Part shown: positions 8,539-64,000 of the stretch, in pieces
How positions within the stretch are numbered: the first letter of the stretch is position 1
Layout: each line of letters opens with the position of its first letter
NCBI GenBank assembly: GCA_021824175.1
Contig: JAKALP010000012.1
Span: 108,185-172,184 of the forward strand
DNA from: Deltaproteobacteria bacterium
GTDB taxonomy: Bacteria; Desulfobacterota; Desulfobacteria; Desulfobacterales; Desulfosarcinaceae
DNA: 64,000 nt
Direction: 5' to 3'
The notes under the pieces: generated by a model
Seen by the model: only the letters and a program-made list of their open reading frames with translations
Databases searched by the model: none
Told to the model about the DNA's origin: nothing
Translations under genes and position numbers: made by a program

Positions 8539-10289
8539 GGCATTTTATAGTGGACGAATACGAATCCATTGTCCTGCCAGACATAGAATTCCAGCCCATC
8601 ATCTTCCAAGCGACGGTCGCAGGTGAACCGCACGCGCAAGGGGCGCTGGTCCGCGGTCAGGGTCAGTACTTCCACGCGCATGCCGTTTAGATTGACTATT
8701 TGCCCGGCGCGCATGGGATAGTCCACTCCTCGAAAGAGTTGATCCAAGTCCTTGGCAATGAAGCCTTGGGATTCGATTTCAAAGGAGACTTCGTCGATCC
8801 GTTTCATGATGAGATCGGTCCCGAGCCCGGATAACAGCCCAAATGATGAGACCGGCGCTCCCATGTGATGCTCTTCGCAAAGCAATGGCACAAAGGAGAT
8901 GCCGAAAGTAATGGGCGGATTGATGAAGACGGCGGTTTTGCCGCTCAAATCTTCATGCTGGACCAACTCCATCAGGGGGTCGCCGATGATCGTGTCTTCA
9001 AACCGTTTCATCGATTTGCAGGTCAGGGGCAGCATCATGGGGGCATGAACAAAGTGGACCATGATCAAAATGACCACGAATGCCTTTGCCAAGCCGCGCC
9101 ATACGCGAAGGCGCGGCAGCCAAGGCGATTGATCCAGCCAGGCGGCCAGAAATTGGGCCAGCAGCCCCATGGCGCCCAGTCCCACGAAAAGCAGATTTCG
9201 GTTGAGGGGTTCGGTAGTACAAATGGGAAGCAGTGACAGAATCATGCCTAAGGCCCAAAATCGCGCCACGGCGTCTCTCTTTAATAAGGGCCGTAATAGA
9301 AGAAAGAGGCCACCTAAAAGCAGGTAGATCATACCCAAAACTAAATAAGAATAAGGCTTGGGCACATATTGATAGAAAGCCCCGTCGGGCAGGAGCCACT
9401 GCCCGTTGAGCAGCACGGGCACGCGTACTATCAGAGCCAATAAAAAGGCCATGGGATCTTCGCCGGGCTCACTATAAAAGCCACTGCCAAAGGTACCGTA
9501 GCCCAAGCGCAGGTATAGGATCAACCAAGTGCCGGCCACCAGGGTATAAGGGGCGATACCCGTTGCTTTCCCGGATAGTTTGTGCGGCCCCAGAAATACT
9601 TCGTATGCCAGAAGATAAGCGCCCATGGCCAGACCGGCTTCACCGCAAAGAAGACTCAATAAAAAGAAAATCGTTCCAAGATACCTTCCTGGCCGCCAAT
9701 GGTCGCGACGCCACCGGTCATGGCAATAGAGGGAAATAAAGCCAAATACGGCCGCAATCAGAACATACCGATTGGCGAGCCATCCGGCCGGAACGCCATG
9801 AGTGTCATCAATGGCAAACAGCAATGCCGCCAGCCCGGCGATCCAGGTGGTCGTCATAAAGCGCCGGTAGAGGATGGCCGCGGTCCATATCATCAACCAG
9901 AACCATATCAGGCTATGCACATGCATCCATGAAGGTTTTTCGGGCCATAGTTGATAGTCCAGCCATAAGCTGAAGGCCGCCAGGGGTCTGAAAAAAGAGA
10001 CGCGCAATTGCGGCAGGGTCCACCACGGCGCTTCGCCGACTTCAATCAATTTTTGATTCTCCTCCGGAATTCCGGAAGTAAAAGTATATAAGTCCATCAT
10101 CGCCGAGGGCAGGCCGGCGATGGAACCGCGTTGTTTCAATTTATAGCGATGGATGTAGTCATCGGACTGCAATCCCGTGGTAATGGAACCAGAGGTCAGC
10201 AGTACAGCCAAAAAAGCGACTACAAGCGGCAAGTATTTGCCGGCCAGGCGATGGCGCAGATATTCTTTTAGCTTTTGATATATTGGCAT
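8460..10289 (-). CDS. Polytopic membrane protein, GT-C glycosyltransferase-like architecture
   Basis: A 609-residue protein with a short cytoplasmic N terminus, about ten hydrophobic helices up to residue 415, and a soluble C-terminal domain of about 190 residues. The first loop contains SDDYIHRY, an acidic pair in the position used by GT-C enzymes (PMT/OST type) for lipid-linked sugar transfer, and WFWLMIWTAAILYRR follows. I do not recognise a named family. A role in modifying envelope glycans or proteins is an inference from topology. Its 3' end runs into the truncated Fur-like gene, so the terminal residues may be altered. Confidence 0.75.
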   Translation of the reverse strand: MPIYQKLKEYLRHRLAGKYLPLVVAFLAVLLTSGSITTGLQSDDYIHRYKLKQRGSIAGLPSAMMDLYTFTSGIPEENQKLIEVGEAPWWTLPQLRVSFFRPLAAFSLWLDYQLWPEKPSWMHVHSLIWFWLMIWTAAILYRRFMTTTWIAGLAALLFAIDDTHGVPAGWLANRYVLIAAVFGFISLYCHDRWRRDHWRPGRYLGTIFFLLSLLCGEAGLAMGAYLLAYEVFLGPHKLSGKATGIAPYTLVAGTWLILYLRLGYGTFGSGFYSEPGEDPMAFLLALIVRVPVLLNGQWLLPDGAFYQYVPKPYSYLVLGMIYLLLGGLFLLLRPLLKRDAVARFWALGMILSLLPICTTEPLNRNLLFVGLGAMGLLAQFLAAWLDQSPWLPRLRVWRGLAKAFVVILIMVHFVHAPMMLPLTCKSMKRFEDTIIGDPLMELVQHEDLSGKTAVFINPPITFGISFVPLLCEEHHMGAPVSSFGLLSGLGTDLIMKRIDEVSFEIESQGFIAKDLDQLFRGVDYPMRAGQIVNLNGMRVEVLTLTADQRPLRVRFTCDRRLEDDGLEFYVWQDNGFVFVHYKMPQIGQTAHLLGPTTPLFGEPQHSARL

Positions 10290-10523
10290 CTATTGGGATT
10301 CCTTCTATGTAGTCCGGGCCGCGGCCCTGTGGGACGCTTGAAAATTGGGAATGAAAAATGGCTCGCCTTTAACTGTGTATTAAATTTACTTCATAATGGA
10401 GGGGGCGCCGGGAATAACTTTCTAGGGGGAGTGGAACGGGCGCTAACATACCCAAGGCAGTGGGTTGATGTCAATGCTTTTAGACTGAAAGCGCTTTTAG
10501 ATTACAAGAATGTTAGGAACGGC

Positions 10524-12476
10524 TCATCCAACATTTTGAAGGGGCAGCCAAAGTGTAATGGTGCAGCCGGGACCGTCGTTATTGGCGGCCTGCACCCGGC
10601 CGCCCATGGCCAGGACCAGCTTTTTGACCAGGGCCAGGCCGATGCCTGTGCCGGGCGTGGCCTGGGTCAGGGCATTGTCGGCGCGGTAGAAATCGTCAAA
10701 GACTTTGTTCAAGGCATGGCGGGGGATGCCCGGTCCGGTGTCGGACACAATGACGCGCACAGTGCCATCCTGGGCCAGGGCCGAGAGGGTGATGCGGCGT
10801 TGGGGGGCGTTGCGGCCGAACTTGATGCTGTTTTCGATCAGGTTGATCAAAATCTGGATCATGGCCTCGCGGTCATAATTGAATTGCGGTACCTGCTCGA
10901 CCTGGACGACCAATTCAAACCCCTCCTGGGTCAGTTTGGGCGCCATGACGGCCTTTACTTCGGCGATCACTTCTTCCAGCCGGCCCGGCGTCATTTGCAC
11001 TCGCCGTTGCTTTTTCTCCAGCTTGGACAGCTCCAGCACATTATTGATCAGTCGGGAGAGCCGGCCGCTCTCCGAGCCGATGATGCCCAAATACTCTTGC
11101 TCGCGCTCGGGCGTGGCGGCAATGCCCTGCTCCAGCATCTCCACATACATGCGGATGTTGGTCAACGGTGTTTTCAGCTCGTGGGTCACCGAGGAGACAA
11201 ATTGTGAGCGCCGTTCGGACAGCGCCACCACGGCGCGCACGCTCTGGTAGATGGTCAACAGCCCCAGCAGCATCACCGCGCCCAAAGCAATCAAGGCCAT
11301 ATTTAGGGTGCGGCGGGTGGCCGACGATGGCAGCCGATCCCCCAGCACCTCGGCGCTGATGAAGTTAAAGGGCGCTGGAAAAAGCCGGGCCGCCACTTTG
11401 CGGCCGTTGGCCCTGGTCACTCCGGCGGTGACCGATTCACCGCGGCCCTCCGGGTTAATGACCATCAGGCGCAGGCGGGTGAAGCCGGCCATGGGCTGGG
11501 GGCTGAAGTAGACCTGGGCCAGGTGGCTCAGAAAAGGCTGCAACTTGAGCACGAAACCCTGGCGAAACACCTGGTTGTTGATGGCCACCCGGCGGAAGAT
11601 AAAGACTTGCGCCGCATCGATGAACACCGATTGCAGGGGCGCCACCTCCACTTCGAAGCGCTGGAGCGTCGGAGCGGTAGCCACTGGGGGGGCCGCGCCA
11701 GCGGCCGGAGCGGGTGCTTGCTCCCTTTGGCGCCGTGACGCCTGGGTCAAGGACTTCAATAGATCGCTTCCAGTGCCTTTATCTTCTTCTGAAACGGCTT
11801 GGGCCTTGGCGGCGCTATCGGCGCCGGCCGATGAACCGGGCGTTTCGCTGGCGGCAATGTTAGCGGCCTGGCGGGGCGAGATCTCTTCGACCCGCACGCT
11901 CTTTTGGCCCAGATAGCTTTTCTTCTCGGCCTTCAGCTTGGAGGGGGCCAGGTAGCGCTCGGAAAACTCCTTCTCATCTTTTTTTTCTGCTTGCGGCGGC
12001 TGCCTCTGCTCGGCCAGAACCGAGGCAGGGTTGAAAGACTCGGTGCTCGTCGGCAGCGCGAATTTCTTCTGATTGAAAACCTGATTGATCTGTTGAAGCT
12101 GATCGATTAAGGGCCGGTAAGATGTCGGACCTTGGACCGAGCCGTCAGATAGCGGGGTCTGCATGGCGCCGTCCGGGTTGTTTTGGAAGTAGCCCAAAAT
12201 GTACTCTTCTTTGGGCATCCCCGCCAGGGGCGAATTCACCGAACGGTTGCCCGTGGAAACCATGGTGGGGTTATATTCATCCACGGCGCGGTTTTCTTCG
12301 CGTTGCACTAGTTGGGCCAACTCCTTCTCCATTTCATCGAACAGGGTTTCGGAGAAGAAACGCAACTGGGCCCACTCCTCCTGCTCCAATCCTTTATAGG
12401 TGCGCCAGATCACGAAGGAGAGGGGCACGGAGAGGGCCAGGCAGAAGAGCAGGATGTAGAGTTTCAAGCGGTTCAT
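10524..12476 (-). CDS. Sensor histidine kinase with large periplasmic domain
   Basis: A 650-residue membrane kinase. TM1 spans about residues 8-26 and TM2 about 393-413, flanking a roughly 365-residue periplasmic region that includes a low-complexity Ala/Pro/Ser stretch. The kinase core has the H-box SSVTHELKTPLTNIRM (His near 432), N-box NLIENSIKF, G1 DTGPGIP and G2 GTGIGLALVKKL. The start chosen is the ATG that overlaps the stop of the response-regulator gene (ATGA). There is no HAMP domain. It is the partner of the OmpR-type regulator upstream. The adjacent VWA-PspA operon suggests envelope-stress sensing (inference). Confidence 0.93.
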   Translation of the reverse strand: MNRLKLYILLFCLALSVPLSFVIWRTYKGLEQEEWAQLRFFSETLFDEMEKELAQLVQREENRAVDEYNPTMVSTGNRSVNSPLAGMPKEEYILGYFQNNPDGAMQTPLSDGSVQGPTSYRPLIDQLQQINQVFNQKKFALPTSTESFNPASVLAEQRQPPQAEKKDEKEFSERYLAPSKLKAEKKSYLGQKSVRVEEISPRQAANIAASETPGSSAGADSAAKAQAVSEEDKGTGSDLLKSLTQASRRQREQAPAPAAGAAPPVATAPTLQRFEVEVAPLQSVFIDAAQVFIFRRVAINNQVFRQGFVLKLQPFLSHLAQVYFSPQPMAGFTRLRLMVINPEGRGESVTAGVTRANGRKVAARLFPAPFNFISAEVLGDRLPSSATRRTLNMALIALGAVMLLGLLTIYQSVRAVVALSERRSQFVSSVTHELKTPLTNIRMYVEMLEQGIAATPEREQEYLGIIGSESGRLSRLINNVLELSKLEKKQRRVQMTPGRLEEVIAEVKAVMAPKLTQEGFELVVQVEQVPQFNYDREAMIQILINLIENSIKFGRNAPQRRITLSALAQDGTVRVIVSDTGPGIPRHALNKVFDDFYRADNALTQATPGTGIGLALVKKLVLAMGGRVQAANNDGPGCTITLWLPLQNVG

Positions 12477-47866: not shown

Positions 47867-48933
47867 AGTTATTCTTCCATCATCGTCCAGCCGTTTTTGT
47901 CCGCCAGCAACCTGCCCCTGCGGACCGCCTGGCTGATGGCCGGCTGGGTCTGTTTGAGCATCTGGGCTAACTCCATTTGGGATATTCCCAACTGGTCCGT
48001 AGCCCAGTAGCACAGTATACTCCTTGCTTGGGTTCGCAGCCTGTCCCGCTGCCCGTCCAACAACTGCCGTGGGCTGATGTTGGTTATCTCCGAAATACGC
48101 TTGCATAGCTTTGTAATATCATAGCCTTCGGCGACCATCCGATATCTATTTTGCAGGCGCTCATCAGCTTGCTTTAAAACCTCTTTGACAAAATCCCCAT
48201 CGCCCAAGATACGCTCGTCACCTTTTTGATAATTGCCGGCCCTACGGTTGGCTTTTAACGACGCCCACCCTCCTTGGCTGCGCAACAGACCGCCGCCGGT
48301 CAATTCCGGTCGCGGGCCCAATTCTATTCCCTTGCGGACAAATTCGCTGTAATTGCTTTTTGCTTCCGTCTTTTTTTTTCCGAACAAGCGCAGCACATAT
48401 TGTCTATTCTGCCAGTCATTTTTAATCTGGCCCAATATGACGCCATGACCGGAAAAAGGATGCTTGGACAAGCGCTTGTACTCTTGAACGATCTTCGCGC
48501 GTAAGGGGTTGAGGTGGATATAGCGCACCAGTTCAAGCAAATATGAATCTTCCTGACACAAAATCGATTTATATCGGTTCTGAAATAGATGCCCGACACG
48601 GCGGTGACGCCGGTTGTAGTGAATGGCATAAGCGGTCAGCAGCCGTTTCATCAGCACTGAAATCGGGATGTTTCCGGTTCTGAGCAGCAGATGAAAATGG
48701 TTGGGTAGTAAAGCCCAGGCAAAACACTGGGTGTCGGACTCAATCAATAAGTCGCGCAATCGTTCGATGAAAAAAGTATAATCATCGGGATCATCAAATA
48801 TGGCGGTCCGATCAATGCCGCGAGCAATAATGTGATGCAATGCGCCGGGGGCATCTATGCGGGCTTGTCTGGGCATAAATATCGCGTAGCAAAACTGCGA
48901 TATAAAATCAACTTATATTTTTATGTACGTCCC
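47844..48933 (-). mobile_element. RAYT-type element with matching inverted ends
   Basis: The left end GGGACGTACATAAATATAT and the complement of the right end GGGACGTACATAAAAATAT match over about 19 bp with one difference, and enclose a single Y1-transposase gene. REP-associated tyrosine transposases usually do not move themselves but disperse short hairpins. The GGGACG repeats on both sides fit such dispersal. Confidence 0.65.
47869..48876 (-). CDS. REP-associated tyrosine transposase (IS200/IS605-like Y1 domain)
   Basis: A 335-residue protein. The Y1 domain spans about 1-180 with the HUH motif PNHFHLLLRT and the catalytic-Tyr helix YAIHYNRRHRRVGHLFQNRY. A long C-terminal extension (200-335) contains a DnaA-domain-IV-like helix-turn-helix (SISEITNISPRQLL-type) and a second HTH-like segment QMELAQMLKQTQPAISQAV. 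This architecture is typical of group RAYTs. The frame is intact. Confidence 0.9.
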   Translation of the reverse strand: MPRQARIDAPGALHHIIARGIDRTAIFDDPDDYTFFIERLRDLLIESDTQCFAWALLPNHFHLLLRTGNIPISVLMKRLLTAYAIHYNRRHRRVGHLFQNRYKSILCQEDSYLLELVRYIHLNPLRAKIVQEYKRLSKHPFSGHGVILGQIKNDWQNRQYVLRLFGKKKTEAKSNYSEFVRKGIELGPRPELTGGGLLRSQGGWASLKANRRAGNYQKGDERILGDGDFVKEVLKQADERLQNRYRMVAEGYDITKLCKRISEITNISPRQLLDGQRDRLRTQARSILCYWATDQLGISQMELAQMLKQTQPAISQAVRRGRLLADKNGWTMMEE

Positions 48934-49128: not shown

Positions 49129-49827
49129 TTATTGGGCGGCCGGTCGCCAGTATGGCCCCATGCCTTTGAGGATCTCAACCAGTTCCACAAAGTAAGATTG
49201 CAGTTTCGAGGCATAGTCAGGGTCCAGTCGCCTAGTGAAAAGGTTTCCGGAAAAAAGTTCCGCCATTGCGGATAATTTGTTGATGCCCGCTTCGGTTTGC
49301 GGTTTGAATCCGCGCCACTTGCGTGCATGCTCCTCCGACCGGAAGAGATTCATGTTGCTTCAGGAAAACGGCAGGTTATTGAACCAGTCCCTGAACGGCA
49401 CGGATGTATATCCGACAATACTATCCGGATCGCTTTCCAGAACCTTTCCGTCTCTCATCACTACTGTGACTTTGGCGCCGCAATCCAGACAGGGCGCCTC
49501 GATGCGTACTGATTTTCCTGGAAACAGCCAGCTGACCGCCAGCGATTCGAAGCCTCACTGGGCTGTCCACTTCTGCTGGCCGTCCACTGTGATGCGATAT
49601 TGGGTGGGAAGGTTGCTGAAAGGCGGGAACGAGCCGATATAATCGGTGTTGGGAAACAACCACGCGGGGAAACCAGGGGAGAAGAGTTCGTGCACCGCTA
49701 GGCGCCCCTCCTCCATGGGTACACCCATTTCAGTGGCGATTTCGGTGAAGTGGGGGGCCTGGCCCGTTTCGATCATCTTTTTCATGATGATCTGGAAAAC
49801 ATGATCGAGCTGTTTGGATTCACTCAT
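49129..49827 (-). CDS. MerB-like (alkylmercury lyase family) protein with two predicted selenocysteines
   Basis: The 232-codon frame starts at ATG 49827 (AGGAGGA just upstream) and contains two in-frame TGA codons, 91 (49555-49557) and 156 (49360-49362). Read through, it gives KWTAQ-U-GFESLAVSWLFPG and NNLPFS-U-SNMNLFRSEEHARK. In MerB the catalytic Cys96, Asp99 and Cys159 fall in the same contexts: U91 aligns with Cys96, Glu94 (three residues on) with Asp99, U156 with the Cys159/160 pair. N-terminal residues 1-75 form the winged-helix part of MerB. Reading frame, codon use and homology continue through both TGAs without any shift. Each TGA is followed at 12-14 nt by a hairpin with a GG-U loop, as in the E. 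coli fdhF SECIS. MerB cleaves carbon-mercury bonds; the substrate here is unproven. Confidence 0.85.
49330..49347 (-). promoter_or_regulatory. Bacterial SECIS-like hairpin for second UGA
   Basis: On the minus strand CTCTTCC pairs with GGAGGAG (7 bp, one G-U) under a GGTC tetraloop, starting 12 nt after the TGA at 49360-49362. Loop GGTC sits 20-23 nt after the UGA, matching the spacing in fdhF. Confidence 0.7.
49531..49543 (-). promoter_or_regulatory. Bacterial SECIS-like hairpin for first UGA
   Basis: On the minus strand GCTG pairs with CAGC around GCGGT. The GGTC stretch is 18-21 nt after the TGA at 49555-49557. The stem is short, but the position and the loop match known bacterial SECIS elements. 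Confidence 0.55.
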
Positions 49828-50324
49828 AAGTCCTCCTCTCATGTTGATGTGGCAGGGACGATGATCCCCTGTCTGGTGAGGGCCCGATTTTCGATTCGTC
49901 GAGATAGTATTGGAGAGCTTTATGACAATTGGCTTCAGCGTGACGAGTGGATGGTAAAAGGAAACCGATGACAATTGAAGCGTCGGGCCGAAAATTAAAG
50001 CCGCCCATGCAGAACTGCGAGCCAGGATACCGCAGAGGCTTAGCCGATGCAGGAGGCAAAAAGAGAAGCATGAGATCGGAAATGTCAGGCTGGTACCGTG
50101 GTGTCCACGTCCAAAAATCGAGGCCTTTGCTGTTCGGTGACGTTATCGCTATCCCGGCTCAGGCTGGCATCGTCTACAAGTAAAACGAATCCGGGAAAAT
50201 GGGAATGGGGTAAACTATGTATCAATGTAACATTGAGTCCCCATCATCATCCGGGGTTTGCCGGCGTTTCCCATCACTTGCGTTGCCAAATCCGAATGTG
50301 ATGGCGGCGGTCTGCCTGGCAGTT
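49828..50324. other. Gene-free stretch upstream of the MerB-like gene
   Basis: About 500 bp containing the promoter region of the MerB-like gene (minus strand) and beyond the end of the cytochrome b gene. Frames present (for instance 49947-50183) have no recognisable features. I checked it for a tRNA-Sec-like cloverleaf and found none I could support. Confidence 0.5.
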
Positions 50325-63557: not shown

Positions 63558-64000
63558 GTGTGCCGGGCACGGCACACGTTCTTAAAAGTGAGCCAAGCAT
63601 ATCAAACGGTTAGAAGGCTTGGCAAGTCTTAGACCCAGCCGGATGGAGGCGAAAGGTGTAGCGGTAGCGCAACCTGGTACCGGCGACGGTGCTGGGGAAA
63701 GAGGCCGCCCTGCCGCGGCAGGGTACCGCGAAGGCACGGGGTGACGACACAGAAACCGGGTGAGGCGTGCATTGTGGGACGAGCCTGCAACACAAGGCGA
63801 AGTCCTCTATCCATTATAAACAATGCCCGTATACTCGGCGCCCACGTACCAAAAGACGTGTGTTTACCCCGGGAGGTGTTGATTTCCAAAATAAATGGAA
63901 CCAAATTTTCAGTTTAGATTGAAGAGCGCGCAATATTTTCAAAGCAATTGGAAGCAGTCGCCGCGCTTCATTTTATTGTATGGGTTTTAAAGGCATCGGC
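63558..64000 (+). mobile_element. 5' part of a class IIC-attC-type group II intron (runs off window)
   Basis: The first bases GTGTGCCGGGC fit the group II 5' consensus GUGYG and follow TTGTT at the base of an attC hairpin, the known target arrangement of IIC-attC introns. The orientation is opposite to the cassettes, as expected. The following 440 bp are highly structured (for example CCCTGCCGCGGCAGGG) with no coding frame of recognisable type, consistent with domain I. Frames inside are spurious. The reverse transcriptase would lie beyond 64000. Confidence 0.62.

What the first reader, a model, noticed from the sequence alone, without database searches (positions are those of the whole stretch)
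49129..49827. MerB-like protein with two predicted selenocysteines at the catalytic cysteine positions
The sequence shows one uninterrupted reading frame broken only by two TGA codons (codons 91 and 156). These TGAs stand where alkylmercury lyase MerB has Cys96 and the Cys159/160 pair, and Glu94 stands where MerB has Asp99. Both UGAs are followed by hairpins with a GG-U loop about 20 nt downstream, the second being a 7-bp stem with a GGUC loop like fdhF. Double, position-specific replacement is very unlikely by decay. A diselenide or selenol pair would bind mercury or cleave a carbon-metalloid bond with unusual strength. I do not know whether this selenoprotein has been described. Ordinary gene calling splits it into two or three small frames.
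Basis: partly seen in the sequence, partly recalled or inferred. Interest (0 to 1): 0.94.

Follow-up and report, generated by a model that had tools for sequence, protein, structure and literature searches.

The report
Double-selenocysteine MerB-like organometal lyase
A relative of the mercury-detoxifying enzyme MerB is encoded with in-frame UGA codons exactly at its two catalytic cysteine positions, in this genome and in many other bacteria; both are predicted to be read as selenocysteine, the protein would likely split carbon-mercury or similar bonds, and because ordinary gene calls end at the UGA codons, surveys of mercury-cycling genes would likely miss it.

Summary
On the minus strand, 49827-49129 is a 232-codon frame with a Shine-Dalgarno site, broken only by UGA at codons 91 and 156, which align with MerB Cys96 and Cys159; Glu94 aligns with Asp99. 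It is not decay. Of 89 distinct full-length relatives, 84 have UGA at both places and 5 have TGC91 + UGA156, with no other internal stop. All three segments are under purifying selection (median dN/dS 0.09-0.15). Both UGAs are followed by hairpins, consensus loop GGUC, with frozen synonymous sites; the second also covaries. The genome has selA, selB, selD (itself a UGA gene) and tRNA-Sec. Cys/Sec interchange needs about 22 changes on the family tree. I conclude that this is a real, widespread double selenoprotein of the MerB superfamily. It meets the cut-off of neither MerB nor the known single-Sec relative SaoL, and lacks SaoL's Cys-Sec motif. Function is inferred: an organometal (probably methylmercury) lyase. 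The genome carries hgcAB; 17 of 23 double-UGA genomes carry hgcA against 97 of 372 others, weaker but still seen within families (p 0.013). No protein evidence exists.

The parts
49129..49827 (-). Coding region of the MerB-like double selenoprotein, 232 codons, ATG at 49827; the TAA stop codon ends at 49129
49832..49837 (-). Shine-Dalgarno sequence AGGAGG, 4 nt before the ATG
   Evidence: sequence
49555..49557 (-). UGA codon 91 = position of MerB Cys96 (predicted Sec91)
49527..49543 (-). Predicted bacterial SECIS hairpin 1: 6-bp stem, loop GGUCA, 17 nt after UGA91
49360..49362 (-). UGA codon 156 = position of MerB Cys159 (predicted Sec156)
49330..49347 (-). Predicted bacterial SECIS hairpin 2: 7-bp stem CUCUUCC/GGAGGAG, loop GGUC, 19 nt after UGA156
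49546..49548 (-). Glu94 codon = position of MerB Asp99 (proton donor in MerB, recalled); Glu in 89 of 89 relatives
49480..49491 (-). Cys113-Leu-Asp-Cys116 motif; Cys113 = MerB Cys117; Cys in 89 of 89 (113) and 88 of 89 (116) relatives

Best explanation
The gene encodes a MerB-superfamily protein whose two catalytic cysteine codons are both UGA, each followed by a conserved hairpin, so that it is predicted to be made as a double selenoprotein and would likely use its two selenols to grip a metal or metalloid and split a carbon-metal bond, most likely carbon-mercury. Shown by sequence: the position-exact UGA pair in 84 of 89 relatives, the RNA-level constraint on the hairpins, Sec/Cys interchange, purifying selection across both UGAs, and a full set of Sec-decoding genes. 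Inferred: UGA91 and UGA156 are decoded by SelB-tRNA(Sec); Sec91 and Sec156 take the place of MerB Cys96 and Cys159 as metal ligands and Glu94 that of Asp99 as proton donor; the Cys113-x-x-Cys116 pair holds the fold or helps hand the product metal to cellular thiols. Suggested by co-occurrence only: in anaerobes with hgcAB it breaks down methylmercury that the cell itself makes.
For: Codons: 84 of 89 distinct full-length CDS are TGA/TGA, 5 are TGC/TGA, no other internal stop in about 21,000 codons, while Trp is encoded by 594 TGG. Selection: median dN/dS 0.09, 0.145 and 0.119 for codons 1-90, 92-155 and 157-228 over 22-25 pairs. RNA: folding below synonymous-codon shuffles is strongest of all scanned positions after codons 155/156 (mean z -2.18/-2.04) and also low after 90/91 (-0.94/-0.89), against -0.20 with sd 0.41 over positions. 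In 8 conserved degenerate hairpin columns codon homozygosity is 0.84 (expected 0.35), against 0.44 (0.39) in 41 columns away from the hairpins. Hairpin 2: 98.7% of cells paired (slid controls 44-63%), 21 cells with both sides changed (shuffled mean 8.3). Interchange: 22 changes among UU/CU/CC on a 158-row tree; well-supported branches force at least 12 for UU and 13 for CU. Machinery: selA, selB, tRNA-Sec UCA, selD with its own in-frame UGA. Catalytic positions align to solved MerB/MerB2. hgcA and hgcB adjacent in the genome; 17 of 23 double-TGA genomes have hgcA over cut-off against 97 of 372 others, Fisher p 5e-6; stratified by family 16 observed against 11.2 expected, p 0.013.
Against: No protein, selenium or activity data exist. 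Asp99 of MerB is Glu here in 89 of 89 relatives, and a selenolate pair might hold Hg(II) too tightly for turnover. No conserved neighbourhood was found, and nine window neighbours scanned show no mer gene; no MerA passes its cut-off in the genome (best 366.8 against 454.45 bits). 6 of 23 double-TGA genomes lack hgcA over cut-off (two of these, G057 and G077, have fragments), and the association weakens when stratified by family. One double-TGA genome, G009 (85% complete), shows no strong SelB (best E 4e-17). SelB is over cut-off in 353 of 395 phylum genomes, so its presence is weak evidence by itself. The site-91 folding signal is weaker and not sharply placed (codons 83-89 give -0.68 to -0.89), and of 5 TGC91 loci, which need no SECIS there, three keep the GGU loop sequence and a fourth the stem. 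Some copies are decayed, split or partial (G374 with a TAA, G387, G019, G150), and two listed proteins have Ser or Gly at 91 (P0108, P0082).
Confidence: 0.6

Rival explanations
1. [quoted passage not shown]
For: Asp99 is replaced by Glu in 89 of 89 relatives and a CxxC motif is present in 88 of 89; no mer gene among nine window neighbours scanned; no MerA over cut-off; 6 of 23 carriers lack hgcA over cut-off; the nearest NCBIfam model is SaoL, named organometallic lyase.
Against: Association with hgcA persists within families at p 0.013; the fold and all three catalytic positions are those of a mercury enzyme.
Confidence: 0.27
2. A double selenoprotein that works as a redox enzyme or as a mercury/selenium-binding sink, not a lyase: Sec91 and Sec156 cycle through a diselenide or selenenylsulfide with Cys113/Cys116, or simply bind Hg(II).
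For: Four chalcogen residues at conserved places; in a Smithella/Syntrophaceae subset downstream genes include a C_GCAxxG_C_C protein, CCG-domain and FAD-oxidase proteins.
Against: An invariant acidic residue at the MerB proton-donor place (89 of 89), not needed by a binding sink; that neighbourhood is shared by a minority only.
Confidence: 0.1
3. A pseudogene or sequencing/assembly error.
For: Ordinary gene calling splits the frame.
Against: The same two TGAs in 84 of 89 distinct loci, dN/dS near 0.1 on all three segments, frozen synonymous sites.
Confidence: 0.01
4. UGA is read as Trp or Cys by reassignment or by leaky readthrough, without selenium.
For: 47 of 120 listed database proteins carry Trp at both sites, which I read as gene calls made with code 4.
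Against: In all 5 loci that lack TGA at 91 the codon is Cys (TGC), not Trp; Trp is TGG 594 times in these genes; SECIS-type hairpins and Sec machinery are present.
Confidence: 0.02

Closest known systems
MerB alkylmercury (organomercurial) lyase (PF03243; NF009710, NF033555; PDB 1s6l, 3f2f)
   Same: Same Pfam domain (E 8e-21); the three catalytic positions align (91/Cys96, 94/Asp99, 156/Cys159), as does Cys113/Cys117; similar length (232 aa against 212-220 for the solved chains).
   Different: Both catalytic Cys codons are UGA, Asp99 is Glu, there is no Cys160 equivalent, an extra Cys116 is present, no mer gene among nine window neighbours scanned; far below the MerB equivalog cut-offs (30.3 of 193; 26.9 of 200 bits).
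SaoL, MerB-like organometallic lyase of the SAO selenoprotein system (NF040728; Haft and Gwadz 2023, as listed in PMC13188914)
   Same: A MerB-superfamily selenoprotein; nearest NCBIfam model (42.7 bits).
   Different: Listed with one Sec in a Cys-Sec motif; here two UGAs, and residue 155 is never Cys (A 64, S 19, R 5, T 1 of 89); far below the SaoL cut-off of 140 bits.
MerB2 (PDB 5c17; from Bacillus megaterium, recalled)
   Same: Best solved relative, E 1.5e-13, profile positions 19-190.
   Different: Cysteines in place of Sec and Ser at the Asp99 place.
MerB-like L126 (predicted single-Sec) and its Cys relatives L123-L125, found here
   Same: MerB-like; L126 has TGA at the Cys159 place where L124, near-identical by eye, has TGC.
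   Different: A distant family (28-36% identity, open frames 235-307 codons, L126 cut by its contig end), Cys at 91, at most one Cys of the 113/116 pair.

Membership tests
Bacterial selenoprotein | In-frame UGA aligned with Cys in homologues | tested here: met
   84 of 89 TGA/TGA, 5 TGC/TGA; four natural C/C proteins P0009, P0047, P0049, P0077
Bacterial selenoprotein | SECIS hairpin just 3' of each UGA, G in first two loop positions | tested here: met
   82 of 89 at each site by minimum-energy fold, with the loop GGUC itself in 51 (site 91) and 72 (site 156); four of the five TGC91 loci also pass at site 91. RNA-level constraint. bSECISearch was not available
Bacterial selenoprotein | selA, selB, selC, selD in the genome | tested here: met
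Bacterial selenoprotein | Selenium present in the protein | not testable with these tools
   needs 75Se labelling or mass spectrometry
MerB superfamily (PF03243) | Pfam gathering score | tested here: met
   74.8 bits against 27
MerB alkylmercury lyase sensu stricto | Cys96, Asp99, Cys117, Cys159 | tested here: not met
   UGA, Glu, Cys, UGA at the aligned places
MerB alkylmercury lyase sensu stricto | NCBIfam curated cut-off | tested here: not met
   30.3 of 193 and 26.9 of 200 bits
MerB alkylmercury lyase sensu stricto | Cleaves organomercurials | not testable with these tools
   needs an enzyme assay
SaoL | NF040728 cut-off of 140 bits | tested here: not met
   42.7 bits for the window protein; scores of the other 44 rows of A2 were not printed one by one, best E 3.5e-14
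SaoL | Cys-Sec motif with one Sec | tested here: not met
   residue before Sec156 is never Cys in 89; two UGAs; motif of SaoL taken from the table of PMC13188914
SaoL | Lies in the SAO operon with transporter selenoproteins | tested here: inconclusive
   No conserved neighbour gene was found and nine window neighbours show no such gene in the scans, but the neighbours of the other loci were not scanned with the Sao models

The most novel reading that the evidence does not exclude
Anaerobic mercury methylators hide a selenium-dependent methylmercury lyase with two selenocysteines in its active site, so the same cell both makes and destroys methylmercury; UGA-split annotation and Cys-based screens have kept this enzyme out of mercury-cycling surveys.
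Probability: 0.4. Interest if true: 0.93.

Novelty: new variant of a known kind. Interest (0 to 1): 0.82.

Why it matters
Selenium binds mercury far more strongly than sulfur does (general chemistry, recalled), so an enzyme that replaces both mercury-binding cysteines of MerB by selenocysteine would be an extreme and testable case of what selenium is for in enzymes. It also touches an open environmental question. The mer survey PMC8261052 screened MerB by Cys96/Asp99/Cys117/Cys159 and reported that none of the genomes with MerB alone codes for HgcAB (passages read). The family found here fails that screen by construction, and 17 of 23 carrier genomes in the phylum sample have hgcA. If it degrades methylmercury, estimates of demethylation from merB counts would need correction.

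Tried and rejected
Pseudogene, read error and UGA reassignment were tested and rejected (machinery). A function from gene neighbourhood was sought in 89 loci (88 plus the window): no neighbour cluster recurs in more than 14, and most immediate neighbours belong to clusters seen once or twice, so the gene looks free-standing. Neighbours were put through family scans only for nine window genes (cytochrome b561, DJ-1/PfpI, transposase, histidine kinase, MarR, DsrE-like, TusA, nitrate-reductase-gamma-like, SUI1) and four of L074, so mer genes near the other loci are not excluded. In a Smithella/Syntrophaceae subset, C_GCAxxG_C_C, CCG-domain and FAD-oxidase genes recur downstream. SelB as a correlate was uninformative, because 353 of 395 phylum genomes have it over cut-off. 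Direct DNA proof that the Trp/Trp database proteins are TGA was sought, but none of the 47 matched a fetched locus at 90% or more; three 155-residue Cys91 proteins did match loci with TGA156 (P0103 at 100%, P0076 and P0087 at 94.8%), while P0108, with Ser at 91, is 94.8% like L081, which has TGA91.

Rows left out of counts: of the loci searched, L120 and L122 (pieces in two frames, TGA at both places), L121 (fragment) and L123-L126 (distant family) are not among the 103 full-length rows; 14 duplicates left 89. The search for related loci returned 80 of 179 relatives, and one of its three search patterns allowed Cys or Trp codons but not TGA at site 91, a bias towards Cys if any; the protein search listed 120 of 232 hits. 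So the samples favour close relatives. The tree used 158 rows; the query, the 47 Trp/Trp proteins and four odd rows (P0069, P0082, P0085, P0108) were left out. In one search, 6 of the 55 conserved degenerate columns lie at the hairpin margins and were put in neither group. In the hgcA test the 372 others include genomes with decayed or partial copies (G374, G387, G019, G150, G337). Its lists were transcribed by hand, and the stratified part covers the 11 families with a carrier other than the window's own. Hairpin 2 was taken from the consensus of the sequences on which it was then counted.

Full report
What is there. The finding lies on the minus strand. From ATG at 49827 the frame runs 232 codons to a TAA that ends at 49129, with TGA at codons 91 and 156 and no other stop. 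AGGAGG stands 4 nt before the ATG. Under table 11 the frame is listed as a 139-aa ORF that ends at TGA91 and a 74-aa ORF that begins after TGA156.

Homology. With the UGAs read as Cys, Pfam MerB (PF03243) matches at E 8e-21 over residues 70-191. The profile of 45 relatives finds solved MerB2 (5c17, 1.5e-13) and MerB (3f2g, 3fn8, 1s6l, 5c0t; 9e-7 to 7e-6). The alignments put residue 91 on MerB Cys96, Glu94 on Asp99, Cys113 on Cys117 and residue 156 on Cys159. Residue 157 is Ser, so only Cys159 of the Cys159/160 pair has a partner.

Conservation of the UGAs. A scan of named species genomes gave 80 loci of 179 relatives; a scan of 395 genomes of the window's phylum gave 43 genomes with a match, and 27 full or nearly full-length places with exactly 2 TGA in 23 genomes; a few further places are partial, split or decayed. 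Of 103 full-length loci 89 are distinct: 84 have TGA at both places, 5 have TGC at 91 and TGA at 156 (L076, L083, L090, L095, L096), and no further internal stop occurs (the one extra TGA counted is taken to be the terminator of L041). Glu94 and Cys113 are 89 of 89, Cys116 is 88 of 89. Record titles include Desulfobacteraceae, Syntrophaceae, Nitrospirae, Nitrospinae, Chloroflexi/Dehalococcoidia, Poribacteria, Tectomicrobia and others; bin purity of these MAGs was not checked. Coding sequences identical between named loci and same-phylum genomes (14 pairs, for example L117 and L088, Deltaproteobacteria SM23_61) place the window's genome in the deltaproteobacterial phylum.

Database proteins. 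Of 120 listed hits, 47 have Trp at both places, 64 have Cys91 and end within residues 153-155, 4 have Cys/Cys (P0009, P0047, P0049, P0077), and 5 are other. I read the Trp as UGA called with code 4 and the 155-residue proteins as gene calls that stopped at UGA156. The second reading is confirmed by DNA for P0103 (100% to L096) and by near-identical loci for P0076 and P0087; the first could not be confirmed by DNA. Two proteins have Gly or Ser at 91 (P0082, P0108). On a FastTree tree of 158 rows (84 UU, 70 CU, 4 CC) the states need 22 changes; well-supported branches force at least 12 (UU) and 13 (CU); shuffles of the labels give a mean of 55. Repeated Sec/Cys interchange at the same codon is the classical mark of selenocysteine (recalled; also the criterion described in PMC13188914).

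Selection. Among 22-25 pairs, median dN/dS is 0.09 before UGA91, 0.145 between the UGAs and 0.119 after UGA156. The protein is thus used beyond both UGAs.

RNA signals. Folding energy of the 42 nt after each codon was compared with synonymous-codon shuffles of the same genes. The mean z is lowest of all scanned positions at codons 155/156 (-2.18/-2.04) and low at 90/91 (-0.94/-0.89), against -0.20 with sd 0.41 over positions; codons 83-89 are nearly as low as 90/91 (-0.68 to -0.89). The consensus after UGA156 is a 7-bp stem CUCUUCC/GGAAGAG with loop GGUC; after UGA91 it is a 6-bp stem GCUGGC/GCUGGC with loop GGUCU. By single-sequence folds 82 of 89 at each site have a hairpin with G in the first two loop positions at 10-36 nt; the loop GGUC itself is seen in 51 (site 91) and 72 (site 156). 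In 8 conserved degenerate columns within the hairpins codon homozygosity is 0.84 against 0.35 expected; in 41 columns away from them it is 0.44 against 0.39. In hairpin 2, over 75 distinct rows, 98.7% of cells pair (slid controls 44-63%), and 21 cells change on both sides (shuffled mean 8.3, 0 of 500 as high). The outer pair links the first base of codon 161 (Leu or Phe) to the silent third base of codon 166: CG 53, UA 24, UG 5, others 7 of 89; thinned to 38 loci under 70% identity, CG 25, UA 9, UG 1, others 3. Against: of the 5 TGC91 loci, which need no SECIS at site 91, three keep the GGU loop sequence, a fourth keeps the stem, and only L096 has lost both. That GGUC is also the loop of E. 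coli fdhF is recalled.

Machinery. The genome (6.07 Mb, 99.5% complete, 3.4% contamination as listed) has selA (620 bits), selB (379 bits), tRNA-Sec with anticodon UCA, and selD with YedF; selD has its own in-frame UGA near its start. Of the 23 genomes with the double-TGA gene, 22 have a SelB match at E 5.3e-94 or better; G009 (85% complete) has only 4e-17. SelB is over cut-off in 353 of 395 phylum genomes, so this is consistent but not discriminating.

Function. The gene looks free-standing: no neighbour family recurs in more than 14 of 89 loci. Nine window neighbours scanned include no mer gene, and no MerA passes its cut-off in the genome. The genome has adjacent hgcA (443.8 bits) and hgcB (128.9 bits), so the organism is a predicted mercury methylator. 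Among 395 phylum genomes, hgcA passes its cut-off in 17 of 23 with the double-TGA gene and 97 of 372 without (Fisher p 5e-6). Within the 11 families holding other carriers, 16 are observed against 11.2 expected (p 0.013). This may reflect shared habitat. Two of the six carriers without a hit over cut-off (G057, G077) have hgcA fragments.

Mechanism proposed. In MerB two thiolates bind the organomercurial and Asp99 moves the proton that releases the hydrocarbon (recalled; PMC8261052 states that Cys96, Asp99 and Cys159 are essential). Here two predicted selenols and a Glu stand at those places. Selenols are ionised at neutral pH and bind soft metals more strongly (recalled), which should favour attack on methylmercury at the low levels of sulfidic sediments; release of Hg(II) would then need thiols, sulfide or the CxxC pair. 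All of this is inference.

Known or new. Single-Sec MerB-like SaoL (motif CU) is listed in PMC13188914 (passages read), and a MerB-like selenoprotein without stated motif in PMC9312934 (passages read). The window protein reaches 42.7 of 140 bits for SaoL and none of 89 relatives has Cys before Sec156. NCBIfam release 20.0 gives the window protein only SaoL and two MerB models, all below cut-off, and one chance-level hit (E 0.041). Paper searches showed no double-Sec MerB in the titles and abstracts listed; one search listed 20 of 48 papers and 10 of 31. The main texts of PMC12013277, PMC5029168 and PMC2398784 hold no 'MerB' (term counts); their supplements were not seen. The two Haft papers are not held, so prior naming there is not excluded. 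PMC8261052 (passages read) screens MerB by Cys96, Asp99, Cys117 and Cys159 and states that none of the MerB-only genomes code for HgcAB.

Verdict. That this is a double selenoprotein I hold at about 0.97; that it is an organometal lyase at about 0.8; that its main substrate is methylmercury at about 0.5.

Noticed in passing
G000 contigs C22 (L127: tRNA-Sec about 8.7 kb in, selB 8807-10729) and C31/C32: The genome has two selB and two tRNA-Sec(UCA) genes. The C22 pair is adjacent, and its SelB matches the family model only over positions 3-358, so its SECIS-binding end looks divergent; it sits near a formate-dehydrogenase-like gene and cysS (both by eye), selD with a UGA, and yedF.
   Followed up: partly
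L123-L126: A second MerB-like family in the same phylum: L126 has TGA at the Cys159 place where its near-identical relative L124 has TGC, so it is likely another, single-Sec selenoprotein.
   Followed up: partly
window 47869-48876, minus strand: IS200-like / REP-associated tyrosine transposase gene directly downstream of the finding (Pfam Y1_Tnp over cut-off; NCBIfam 66.1 of 80 bits).
   Followed up: no
window 63677-63863, plus strand: Group II intron domain (RF02001), 94.6 bits.
   Followed up: no
L128 9327-11494 (G000 C32, just downstream of tRNA-Sec): A mercuric-reductase-like flavoprotein gene (366.8 bits, below the MerA cut-off of 454.45) followed by what looks by eye like a TVP38/DedA membrane protein, next to the tRNA-Sec gene.
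   Followed up: no
L054, second match about 9 kb downstream of the first: This contig carries a second copy of the double-TGA MerB-like gene, cut by the contig end; G083 (3), G140 (2) and G077 (2) also carry more than one copy.
   Followed up: no
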